A DNA stretch of 64,000 bases from Candidatus Gastranaerophilales bacterium. GTDB lineage: Bacteria; Cyanobacteriota; Vampirovibrionia; Gastranaerophilales; Gastranaerophilaceae. Under the pieces are notes generated by a model. It was not told the DNA's origin, did not search any database, and worked only from the letters and a program-made list of their open reading frames with translations. Position numbers and translations under genes: made by a program. Below are positions 42,484-48,648 of the stretch, in pieces; the stretch's first letter is position 1, and the number at the start of each line of letters is the position of its first letter. Location of the stretch: the NCBI GenBank assembly GCA_944326545.1, contig CALVEH010000003.1, forward strand, positions 207,986 through 271,985, written 5' to 3'.

Positions 42484-43797
42484 ATGAAAAAAATTTATAT
42501 AGGTATGAGTGCCGATTTATTGCACCCAGGACACCTAAACATAATTGAACAAGCAAGAAAAATAGCAGGCGACGACGGAGAAATTATCGTTGGACTGCTA
42601 ACAGACAAAGCTATTGCAAGTTACAAAAGATTGCCTTATATGACTTATGAACAAAGAAAAGTTGTCATAGAAAATGTAAAAGGTGTAACCCAAGTAATCC
42701 CTCAAGAAACATTAGACTATGTTCCAAACTTGAGAAAAATAAAACCTGACTACGTTTTACACGGTGATGATTGGAAAGAAGGTATCCAAGCTCAAACAAG
42801 ACAAAGAGTAATAGACGTTATGAAAGAATGGGATGGAGAAGTTATTGATATCCCGTATACAAAAGGTATTTCTTCAACACAACTGAACAAAGTTCTTAAA
42901 GAAATCGGAACAACTCCGGAAATAAGATGCGGCAGACTAAGACGACTATTAGCAAGCAAAGATATAGTAAAAATATGCGAAGCTCATAACGGTCTGAGCA
43001 GTCTGATAGTAGAAAACACAAGTGTTATTAAAGATAACAGAAAATACGAATTTGACGGCATTTGGATATCTTCTCTTACACAATCTGCAGCAAAAGCAAA
43101 ACCTGATATAGGTTATTTAGATACAACATCTCGTCTTGATACAATAAACGACATATTAGACGCAACAACAAAATCAATAGTTTATGACGGTGACAACGGA
43201 GGCCCCCAAGAGCATTTTATCTTTACGGTAAAATCACTTGAAAGACTCGGAGTATCCGCGATTATAATTGAAGACAAAACAGGGTTGAAGAAAAATTCAC
43301 TGTTTGGAACAGAAGTAGAACAAGAACAGGAAAACAAAGAAATCTTTGCCGAAAAAATCAGAGCCGGCAAACAAGCCCAAGTAACAGAACAATTTATGAT
43401 TATTGCAAGAATTGAAAGTCTCATTCTTGAAAAGGGGCTTGAAGATGCATTAGAAAGAGCAAAAACATACCTCAATGCAGGTGCAGACGGCATTATGATT
43501 CATTCTCGTTCTACATCTTTTGATGAAATAAAAGCGTTTGCAAAAGAATACAATAAATTAGAAAACAGAAAGCCGTTAGTCGTAGTACCATCATCGTACG
43601 CTCAAGTAACTGAAGAAGAACTTGTTGAAAACGGAATAAATATGGTAATCTACGCAAACCATCTTTTAAGAGCAGCTTATCCTGCAATGGTTAATGCGGC
43701 AAAATCAATATTAGAACACCACAGCTGCAAACAAGCTTCTGATGAATATTGTATGAAAATAAAAGATATTTTAACTTTAATTCCCGGTGCAAAATGA
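42484..43797 (+). CDS. Cytidylyltransferase-phosphoenolpyruvate mutase fusion
   Basis: 437 residues. The N-terminal cytidylyltransferase has HPGH (14-17) and GISSTQL (128-134). The C-terminal PEP mutase has the diagnostic EDKTGLKKNS (263-272) and GADGIMIHSRS. PEP mutase makes phosphonopyruvate, the entry to C-P compounds. The fused cytidylyltransferase could activate the phosphonate as a CMP ester, as in PntC-type proteins. The next gene's ATG overlaps its TGA, so both are coupled. Confidence 0.9.
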   Translation: MKKIYIGMSADLLHPGHLNIIEQARKIAGDDGEIIVGLLTDKAIASYKRLPYMTYEQRKVVIENVKGVTQVIPQETLDYVPNLRKIKPDYVLHGDDWKEGIQAQTRQRVIDVMKEWDGEVIDIPYTKGISSTQLNKVLKEIGTTPEIRCGRLRRLLASKDIVKICEAHNGLSSLIVENTSVIKDNRKYEFDGIWISSLTQSAAKAKPDIGYLDTTSRLDTINDILDATTKSIVYDGDNGGPQEHFIFTVKSLERLGVSAIIIEDKTGLKKNSLFGTEVEQEQENKEIFAEKIRAGKQAQVTEQFMIIARIESLILEKGLEDALERAKTYLNAGADGIMIHSRSTSFDEIKAFAKEYNKLENRKPLVVVPSSYAQVTEEELVENGINMVIYANHLLRAAYPAMVNAAKSILEHHSCKQASDEYCMKIKDILTLIPGAK

Positions 43798-47562: not shown

Positions 47563-48648
47563 ATGAAACAAGACTATAAAAAGCTATATAAACAAGTTAT
47601 AAAAGAATACAAAGATTTTTACGCAACTCTTGAAGCAACAAAATTAAATCAAGCAACAGGAGTTTTAAGAGAATACCAACTGAATACGTTGAACTTTTGC
47701 AAAAAAATAATTAAACAATTAGATGAACTAAATCTTCCATACTTTCCAATAGGAGGAACTTTAATAGGCGCATTAAGACACGGCGGTTTTATCCCTTGGG
47801 ATGACGACTTTGATATAGGGATGATGAGAAAAGACTACGAAACTTTTTTAAAATACTGCGAACAAAATTATGTATGTATTGCTCCTGAAGAAATTAGTTT
47901 CTCAAAAAACAACCGTTCTCTTGTATGGAACAAATACCTTGAAATGCACCCAAAACAAATTATATACTCACAAACCCCACACCACACACAAATAATCTAT
48001 GGAACAAATATTGATGATTGCGTCAATATTGACATTTTTGCACACGATTATTACAAAGAAGATATAACGATAGAATGGTATAGAGAATACATAAATAAAA
48101 TCAACAAAGAAAAACACTGCAAAGATAATTTTAAAACCATTATTGAATATTTTGAAAAAGAAAGAAAAACTAACCCGATATTTGTCGACCAAAGCTCAAG
48201 AATATATTATGGGTTGGATAATATTGATAATTACATATTAAGGCACAAAAATTTCTTTAGCTATGATACAATTTTCCCGTTAAAAAAAGCGAAATTTGAA
48301 GATATAGAAATTTCTATTCAAAACAATGCATTAGAATATGCAGAACTTCAATATTCAAATTGTATGTCAATGCCTTCGGATATTGAAATATCACCACATC
48401 TTAATTTACGCAAAGAAAATACGGAAAAATACAACCACATTACAGGGAATAAATTTAAAGAATTGTTGTACCAATTAGTCTTTAAAATATGTATGAGAAA
48501 TGTTTCTGACGAAAATATCAATTACAAAAGTATGGTGATTAGAGAATTTAAAGAACGACTTTATCTAAAAAAAGAACAAGAAGTCTTTAAAAAACTATAT
48601 GAAACAACTAAACAGAAACTTGATTTTTTAAAAACAATAAAGCCATAA
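47563..48648 (+). CDS. LicD family phosphotransferase
   Basis: 361 residues. The LicD motif is FPIGGTLIGALRHGGFIPWD followed by DDFDIGMMRKDYE. LicD proteins move phosphocholine or similar groups from CDP carriers to sugars. Because the only CMP-activated substrate that this locus appears to make is a phosphonate, transfer of hydroxyethylphosphonate is an attractive inference. Convergent with the next gene, 2 bp apart. Confidence 0.9.
   Translation: MKQDYKKLYKQVIKEYKDFYATLEATKLNQATGVLREYQLNTLNFCKKIIKQLDELNLPYFPIGGTLIGALRHGGFIPWDDDFDIGMMRKDYETFLKYCEQNYVCIAPEEISFSKNNRSLVWNKYLEMHPKQIIYSQTPHHTQIIYGTNIDDCVNIDIFAHDYYKEDITIEWYREYINKINKEKHCKDNFKTIIEYFEKERKTNPIFVDQSSRIYYGLDNIDNYILRHKNFFSYDTIFPLKKAKFEDIEISIQNNALEYAELQYSNCMSMPSDIEISPHLNLRKENTEKYNHITGNKFKELLYQLVFKICMRNVSDENINYKSMVIREFKERLYLKKEQEVFKKLYETTKQKLDFLKTIKP

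What the first reader, a model, noticed from the sequence alone, without database searches (positions are those of the whole stretch)
42484..48648. Hydroxyethylphosphonate route by two fusion proteins, leading to LicD
PEP mutase is fused to a cytidylyltransferase, and the decarboxylase is fused to an alcohol dehydrogenase. Both fusions lie in one overlapping operon, so four steps sit on two proteins. A LicD protein and a CDP-polyol-type transferase are nearby, so transfer of CMP-activated hydroxyethylphosphonate to surface glycan is predicted.
Basis: inference. Interest (0 to 1): 0.75.

Follow-up and report, generated by a model that had tools for sequence, protein, structure and literature searches.

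The report
Two-protein route to CMP-hydroxyethylphosphonate
A bacterium carries two overlapping genes, each coding for two enzymes fused into one protein, that are predicted to turn the common metabolite phosphoenolpyruvate into an activated form of a rare carbon-phosphorus compound, which transferases encoded beside them would likely attach to the cell surface.

Summary
Observation confirmed. Gene 1 (42484-43797) is a cytidylyltransferase-PEP mutase fusion; gene 2 (43794-46001, ATGA overlap) is a phosphonopyruvate decarboxylase-alcohol dehydrogenase fusion. LicD follows; a TagF-type (PF04464-family) transferase lies in a convergent block. Predicted product: CMP-2-hydroxyethylphosphonate (CMP-HEP). 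The cytidylyltransferase is 63% identical to that of solved structure 5x3d (Fom1, by recall); Fom1 activates HEP. The dehydrogenase shares the unusual Asp-Gln-His-His metal site of sulfoacetaldehyde reductase TauF. In 30 of 30 Gastranaerophilales genomes with this PEP-mutase type, decarboxylase and dehydrogenase are fused (21) or adjacent (9). Surface transfer is inferred: close LicD orthologues occur in 9 of 30 such genomes and 0 of 256 others; close TagF-type orthologues in 18 of 30 and 2 of 256; no enzyme for CDP-glycerol, CDP-ribitol or CDP-choline was recognised in the host genome; one relative's single open frame holds dehydrogenase, LicD, GT2 and TagF-type domains. LicD-family proteins were not found in 10 of the 30, so LicD is not the general endpoint; the TagF-type enzyme is an equal candidate. 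The PEP mutase-cytidylyltransferase fusion and the chemistry to CMP-HEP are published; the second fusion and the link to these two transferases are a new variant of a known kind.

The parts
42484..43797 (+). Gene 1: N-terminal Fom1-type cytidylyltransferase (about 42484-42906) fused to PEP mutase (about 42937-43788)
43794..43797 (+). ATGA overlap of the stop of gene 1 and the start of gene 2
   Evidence: sequence
43794..46001 (+). Gene 2: phosphonopyruvate decarboxylase (about 43794-44909) fused to metal-dependent alcohol dehydrogenase, predicted phosphonoacetaldehyde reductase (about 44928-45998)
46013..47152 (+). FkbM-family methyltransferase; role in the pathway unknown
   Evidence: PF05050 57.9 bits, TIGR01444 70 bits, both over cut-off
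47152..47550 (+). orf4: small protein, weak C2185-like_N match (E 0.0004, below cut-off); an orf4-like domain is fused to LicD in L211 and L212
47563..48648 (+). LicD-family protein, candidate HEP transferase; motif GGTLIGALRHGGFIPWDDDFD
48651..49652 (-). GT2-type glycosyltransferase, convergent with LicD
   Evidence: PF00535 146.3 bits
49652..50953 (-). orf7: TagF-type (PF04464-family by close homologues) GT-B transferase, second candidate HEP transferase
50959..51375 (-). orf8: small protein related to orf4, beside orf7 in many relatives

Best explanation
Two fused enzymes encoded by overlapping genes are predicted to carry phosphoenolpyruvate through four steps to CMP-2-hydroxyethylphosphonate (CMP-HEP), which LicD-type and/or TagF-type transferases encoded beside them would likely attach to a cell-surface glycan. 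All steps are inferred from sequence: (1) PEP mutase makes phosphonopyruvate; (2) the decarboxylase half of the second protein makes phosphonoacetaldehyde and pulls the unfavourable first step forward; (3) its alcohol dehydrogenase half reduces the aldehyde to HEP with NAD(P)H; (4) the Fom1-type domain of the first protein couples HEP to CMP; (5) a transferase moves HEP onto a hydroxyl and releases CMP. Steps 1-4 are strongly supported; step 5, its acceptor, and which transferase acts are open.
For: PEP mutase and decarboxylase pass curated cut-offs. The cytidylyltransferase's best solved relative is 5x3d_A, 194.6 bits, next cytidylyltransferase 56.1, 84 of 134 residues identical; the Fom1 domain makes CMP-HEP (PMC6697681 section 6). 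The dehydrogenase's best solved relative is 6jko, BkTauF, a sulfoacetaldehyde reductase with zinc ligands Asp-Gln-His-His (PMC6616044 passages); the window has D552, Q556, H620, H634. Decarboxylase and dehydrogenase are fused in 21 and adjacent in 9 of 30 genomes with the close PEP-mutase type; a dehydrogenase stands beside 30 of 30 such loci against 2 of 11 other fetched PEP-mutase loci of the order. The domain is of the intact-motif kind found where, as a rule, no other activating enzyme is near. Close LicD orthologues 9 of 30 versus 0 of 256, close orf7 orthologues 18 of 30 versus 2 of 256; LicD or an orf7 relative in 29 of 30 versus 139 of 256. No TagD, TarI or LicC type recognised in the host genome. 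One open frame in L073 holds Fe-ADH, LicD, GT2 and Glyphos_transf.
Against: No enzyme was assayed. The dehydrogenase is far below the cut-off of TIGR03405 (147.2 against 423.7), and Phe252, a conserved substrate-site residue of TauF, is Ile611 here. LicD-family proteins were not found in 10 of 30 cassette genomes and occur in 93 of 256 others; only 9 of 30 have LicD within 5 kb on the same strand, plus one on the other strand (L160). One cassette genome (G239) has neither LicD nor an orf7 relative. One aminotransferase-type locus (L109) has an intact domain of this type. Fold search ranks orf7 closest to UDP-GlcNAc 2-epimerases. Co-occurrence was not corrected for descent. Two host PF12804 hits below cut-off were not examined.
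Confidence: 0.7

Rival explanations
1. LicD alone attaches single HEP groups to a glycan, as it does phosphocholine in other bacteria, and the TagF-type enzyme is unrelated.
For: LicD lies in the same operon; close LicD orthologues occur only in cassette genomes, in three of them unlinked from the cassette.
Against: 10 of 30 cassette genomes have no LicD-family match, and 9 of those 10 have an orf7 relative; close orf7 orthologues are the commoner partner, 18 of 30.
Confidence: 0.25
2. The dehydrogenase acts on another aldehyde and the phosphonate is something else, for example aminoethylphosphonate.
For: TIGR03405 cut-off not reached; the superfamily is broad; Ile611 replaces Phe252 of TauF.
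Against: Fused or adjacent to the decarboxylase in 30 of 30; no aminotransferase-type gene on the same strand within 5 kb of the 30 loci, against 6 of 11 other fetched loci of the order; cytidylyltransferase close to 5x3d/Fom1.
Confidence: 0.08
3. CMP-HEP is made but goes to a phosphonolipid or a soluble metabolite rather than to a glycan.
For: In fosfomycin biosynthesis CMP-HEP is an intermediate of a soluble product (PMC8158854 passages); acceptors cannot be read from sequence.
Against: The repeated partners are glycan-type genes (LicD, GT2, PF04464 type); nothing in the operon resembles the later fosfomycin steps by the family scans.
Confidence: 0.15
4. LicD and orf7 use another CDP-alcohol, and their co-occurrence with the cassette reflects shared inheritance of one surface-polymer island.
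For: Co-occurrence was not corrected for descent; two orf7-bearing genomes without cassette have a glycerol-3-phosphate-type cytidylyltransferase near orf7 (86.1 and 89.2 bits, below the cut-off of 165.4).
Against: No TagD, TarI or LicC type recognised in the host; LicD and orf7 lie unlinked from the cassette in G155, G006 and G012 yet still co-occur with it; in the window's genus orf7 is 5 of 5 versus 0 of 11.
Confidence: 0.15

Closest known systems
Fom1, Fom2 and FomC of Streptomyces fosfomycin biosynthesis
   Same: PEP to 2-HEP-CMP (PMC8158854 passages); Fom1 is also a cytidylyltransferase-PEP mutase fusion (PMC6697681).
   Different: Three proteins there, two here, because decarboxylase and dehydrogenase are fused; partners here are glycan-type transferases and no fosfomycin tailoring enzyme was seen in the operon.
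Phosphonyl tailoring (Pnt) pathway of oral anaerobes (PntC)
   Same: PEP mutase, decarboxylase, CMP activation of a phosphonate, LicD-like or glycosyltransferase genes nearby, proposed surface decoration (PMC6697681 passages and sections 6 and 10).
   Different: There the phosphonate is aminoethylphosphonate, made by an aminotransferase and activated by a PF12804 enzyme; here a dehydrogenase and a PF01467 domain.
Lic pathway (LicC, LicD; phosphocholine)
   Same: CMP-activated head group moved to a glycan by LicD-family protein (PMC6697681 section 6).
   Different: No LicC type was recognised in the host genome; phosphonate instead of phosphate ester is predicted.
TagF / TarL teichoic acid polymerases
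BkTauF sulfoacetaldehyde reductase
   Same: Best solved relative of the dehydrogenase half; same Asp-Gln-His-His metal site.
   Different: Fused to a decarboxylase; predicted substrate is the phosphonate analogue; Phe252 is Ile611 here.

Membership tests
PEP mutase (TIGR02320) | Score over curated cut-off and EDKxxxxxNS motif | tested here: met
   378.6 against 319.55; EDKTGLKKNS
Fom1-type HEP cytidylyltransferase | Closer to Fom1 domain than to other cytidylyltransferases, HxGH and ISS motifs intact | tested here: met
   194.6 against 56.1 bits (that 5x3d is Fom1 is recall); HPGH and GISS; tree without starred support at Fom1
Fom1-type HEP cytidylyltransferase | HEP as preferred substrate | not testable with these tools
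   Needs an assay
Phosphonopyruvate decarboxylase (TIGR03297) | Score over curated cut-off | tested here: met
   499.4 against 312.5
Phosphonate-cluster Fe-ADH PsrA (TIGR03405) | Score over curated cut-off | tested here: not met
   147.2 against 423.7; filed only as Fe-ADH superfamily (PF00465 125.1 against 31.3)
Metal-dependent ADH of TauF type | Asp-Gln-His-His metal site and substrate-site residues Phe252, Thr257, Phe265 | tested here: inconclusive
   Metal site and Thr (T616) shared, Tyr624 at Phe265 (a replacement the paper reports), but Ile611 at Phe252
LicD (PF04991) | Score over curated cut-off | tested here: met
   101.2 against 22.6
Glyphos_transf (PF04464) | Score over curated cut-off | tested here: inconclusive
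   orf7 itself has no hit; a 61% identical homologue passes, 26.9 against 22.1
Phosphonyl tailoring pathway | PEP mutase, decarboxylase, CMP activation and transferase genes together | tested here: met
Phosphonyl tailoring pathway | Phosphonate present on the surface glycan | not testable with these tools
   Needs 31P NMR or mass spectrometry

The most novel reading that the evidence does not exclude
CMP-HEP is the chain-building donor of a TagF-type polymerase: because HEP, unlike aminoethylphosphonate, keeps a free hydroxyl, the cell strings it, alone or alternating with sugars, into a carbon-phosphorus analogue of teichoic acid on its surface.
Probability: 0.15. Interest if true: 0.88.

Novelty: new variant of a known kind. 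Interest (0 to 1): 0.6.

Why it matters
It names one phosphonate (HEP), its whole activation route on two proteins and two candidate transferases, all testable in E. coli. The later steps of phosphonyl tailoring were called enigmatic in 2019 (PMC6697681 abstract); here transferases are picked out by co-occurrence across genomes, in several of them away from the cassette. The survey also suggests a rule, one working cytidylyltransferase per PEP-mutase locus, which could explain clusters that carry both a fused and a separate nucleotidyltransferase (described in PMC6697681 section 6).

Tried and rejected
Considered and thought unlikely: aminoethylphosphonate as the product (no aminotransferase-type gene on the same strand within 5 kb of the 30 close-type loci); a fusion made by an assembly error (fused in 21 of 30 close-type genomes).

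Weak or led nowhere: a profile of 30 orf7 homologues against PDB sequences gave one match, a UDP-GlcNAc 2-epimerase at E 0.025. Promoter-like sites 49 against 42.6 +/- 6.5 in shuffles, so not informative; terminator-like sites 9 against 4.6 +/- 1.9, none used. P0319 had a precomputed PF22674 beside an orf7-like part, but the Pfam scan gave no family at E 0.001, so no orf8-orf7 fusion is claimed. The Fisher test on dehydrogenase adjacency used a wrong second row; corrected counts (30 of 30 versus 2 of 11) are. Three of 93 PEP-mutase rows without a cytidylyltransferase domain (L072, L099, L100) were dropped before the counts. Of the PEP-mutase places of the order, G272:C71, G257:C58 and G273:C92 were not fetched. 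In one search the PF12804-like search used a home-made profile from 26 seeds at 15 bits, without a curated cut-off. Aminotransferase, PntC-like and radical SAM labels rest on similarity to one protein each (L169, L171, L165) that was checked with NCBIfam or Pfam.

Papers: searches (open-licence PMC only) listed no title or abstract on a decarboxylase-dehydrogenase fusion; PMC6697681 was the only listed paper holding both hydroxyethylphosphonate and LicD. Most listed papers were seen in the listing only. Read: PMC6697681 abstract, outline, passages, first part of the text, sections 6 and 10; PMC6616044, PMC8158854, PMC8931226 and PMC12723261 passages. Cho 2017 (Fom1) and Yu 2014 (phosphonoglycans) were seen only as references.

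Full report
What is there. The window lies in contig C3 of a 2.19 Mb assembly of 19 contigs; the homologues that carry organism names include Candidatus Gastranaerophilales. From 42484 an operon-like row of genes runs on the plus strand: cytidylyltransferase-PEP mutase, decarboxylase-alcohol dehydrogenase, FkbM methyltransferase, a small protein (orf4), LicD. The first two overlap by ATGA. Facing them on the minus strand are a GT2, orf7 and orf8.

The four predicted steps. PEP mutase passes TIGR02320 and has the EDKxxxxxNS motif; the decarboxylase passes TIGR03297. The best solved relative of the cytidylyltransferase domain is 5x3d_A at 194.6 bits; the next cytidylyltransferase scores 56.1. 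84 of 134 residues are identical. That 5x3d is the Fom1 domain is recall; one search shows the name phosphoenolpyruvate phosphomutase and a length of 160. Rice et al. state that the Fom1 domain makes CMP-HEP (PMC6697681 section 6). The dehydrogenase half is below the cut-off of TIGR03405. Its best solved relative is 6jko, BkTauF, which interconverts sulfoacetaldehyde and isethionate, the sulfonate counterparts of phosphonoacetaldehyde and HEP (PMC6616044 abstract and passages). That paper gives the zinc ligands as Asp192, Gln196, His261 and His275 and calls Gln atypical; the window has D552, Q556, H620 and H634, with T616 at Thr257 and Y624 at Phe265. Against the parallel, Phe252 of TauF is Ile611 here. 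Some relatives have His at 556, as the paper also reports for TauF relatives.

Census in the order. Of 286 genomes, 42 have a decarboxylase-dehydrogenase match and 42 a PEP-mutase match. Thirty genomes have the close PEP-mutase type (over 690 bits; 'cassette genomes'). In all 30, decarboxylase and dehydrogenase lie beside it: 21 as one protein, 9 as two adjacent genes. Of 11 other PEP-mutase loci of the order that I fetched, 2 have a dehydrogenase, 6 an aminotransferase-type gene and 3 a radical SAM-cytidylyltransferase protein. The aminotransferase of L169 passes TIGR03301 (477.5 against 360.8). Finding the same neighbours fused in some genomes and split in others argues that the dehydrogenase works on the decarboxylase product. 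In 80 named loci, most from other groups, I saw the split form (for example Marinimicrobia L053, Elusimicrobia L056, Salinivirgaceae L062, Planctomycetota L064) and no single open frame with both. In 244 genomes of the phylum, uninterrupted full-length matches were in 10, all of the window's order; one more distant genome (G377) has a full-length match with a stop inside. The fusion looks confined to this lineage in what I sampled.

One working cytidylyltransferase per locus. Among 90 PEP-mutase proteins with a cytidylyltransferase domain (3 of 93 without it dropped), HxGH and ISS are both intact in 39, degenerate in 50, and the domain is truncated in 1. Of the 39, 36 have no PF12804-like nucleotidyltransferase within 5 kb on the same strand; of the 50, 43 do. 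Of the other 7, four are radical SAM loci and one is L103, all five with a second, intact cytidylyltransferase; L110 is a 3.7 kb locus and L075 is unexplained. Three loci have an intact domain and a PF12804-like gene. Of the 39 intact ones, 38 are beside a dehydrogenase and 1 (L109) beside an aminotransferase. A further 25 dehydrogenase loci have a degenerate domain, 24 of them with a PF12804-like gene, so a dehydrogenase does not require this kind of domain. In a tree of 93 rows (the 90, the Fom1 segment and two outgroup rows) Fom1 lies among dehydrogenase-paired rows without starred support; the dehydrogenase label needs 6 changes against a shuffled mean of 20.4.

Transfer. LicD-family matches are in 113 of 286 genomes and 20 of the 30 cassette genomes. 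Close orthologues of the window's LicD (over 380 bits) are in 9 genomes, all of them cassette genomes; in G155, G119 and G130 they lie on another contig than the cassette. orf7 relatives are in 108 of 286 genomes, 24 of 30 cassette genomes; close orthologues (over 500 bits) are in 20, of which 18 are cassette genomes. Fisher tests give 1e-18 (orf7) and 5e-10 (LicD), not corrected for descent; in the window's genus orf7 is 5 of 5 versus 0 of 11, p 2e-4. LicD or an orf7 relative is present in 29 of 30 cassette genomes against 139 of 256 others; the exception is G239, and 9 of the 10 LicD-less genomes have an orf7 relative. In G155, G006 and G012 LicD and orf7 lie near each other but away from the cassette, and in G006 and G012 LicD is fused to an orf4-like domain.

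Donor argument. LicD and PF04464 enzymes characteristically use CDP-alcohol donors (established family knowledge). The host genome has four PF01467 matches: NadD, HldE domain II, CoaD and the window's own domain. Its seven PF12804 matches over the cut-off are GlmU, IspD, KdsB, glucose-1-phosphate cytidylyltransferase, RmlA, mannose-1-phosphate guanylyltransferase and one sugar-1-phosphate type below every cut-off; two matches under the cut-off were not examined. PF01128 finds IspD and a cross-match to GlmU. No TagD, TarI or LicC type was recognised, so CMP-HEP is the only evident CMP-activated alcohol phosph(on)ate for these transferases. In the two genomes with a close orf7 but no close PEP mutase (G231, G187), a separate cytidylyltransferase stands near orf7; its best model is glycerol-3-phosphate cytidylyltransferase, below the cut-off. 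A distant orf7 relative in G130 is followed by a gene over the cut-off of the ribitol-5-phosphate cytidylyltransferase model. This looks like donor swapping beside one transferase family.

Multi-domain relative. In L073 (Ruminococcaceae UBA5396), one 1849-residue open frame after a cytidylyltransferase-PEP mutase and a decarboxylase holds NTP_transf_3, Fe-ADH, LicD (166.1 bits), GT2 and Glyphos_transf (251.2 bits). It ties the dehydrogenase to both transferase families in one polypeptide. The frame was not checked against reads.

Novelty. PEP mutase-cytidylyltransferase fusions are published (23.6% of PEP mutases in PMC6697681), and 2-HEP-CMP is made by three fosfomycin enzymes (PMC8158854 passages). 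The decarboxylase-dehydrogenase fusion and the pairing with LicD and a TagF-type transferase did not turn up in the searches named under Tried and rejected. I call this a new variant of a known kind. The boldest reading not excluded is a HEP-based chain resembling teichoic acid.

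Noticed in passing
L165:6348-7775 (+), L163:5024-6460 (-), L166:8489-9919 (+), L087:8524-9990 (+): Radical SAM protein fused to an intact cytidylyltransferase (HPGH and GISS/GVSS), between a PEP mutase whose own cytidylyltransferase is degenerate and a decarboxylase, with no dehydrogenase or aminotransferase beside it. It may modify a CMP-activated phosphonate; Fom3 is a radical SAM enzyme that acts on 2-HEP-CMP (PMC8158854).
   Followed up: partly
90 PEP-mutase proteins of the fetched loci: The fused cytidylyltransferase is mostly degenerate where a PF12804-like nucleotidyltransferase lies near (43 of 50) and intact where none does (36 of 39): a possible rule of one working cytidylyltransferase per locus.
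   Followed up: partly
L073:2852-8401 (+): One 1849-residue open frame with NTP_transf_3, Fe-ADH, LicD, GT2 and Glyphos_transf domains after cytidylyltransferase-PEP mutase and decarboxylase.
   Followed up: partly
L211:7576-8853 (+) and L212:7825-9129 (+): LicD fused to a domain like the window's orf4, hinting that orf4 and LicD work as a pair.
   Followed up: no
L155:6103-7215 (+): A sulfotransferase-family protein (PF13469 28.3 bits, cut-off 27) upstream of a cassette.
   Followed up: no
window 51434-54043 (-): Autotransporter-like protein of 869 aa; PATR repeat match below cut-off.
   Followed up: no
window 6571-22255: By eye only, from the translations: a PAPS-reductase-like protein, a ParB/DNA-methyltransferase-like protein, a DNA methylase and specificity-like proteins and an ATPase-like protein; perhaps mobile or defence genes.
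   Followed up: no
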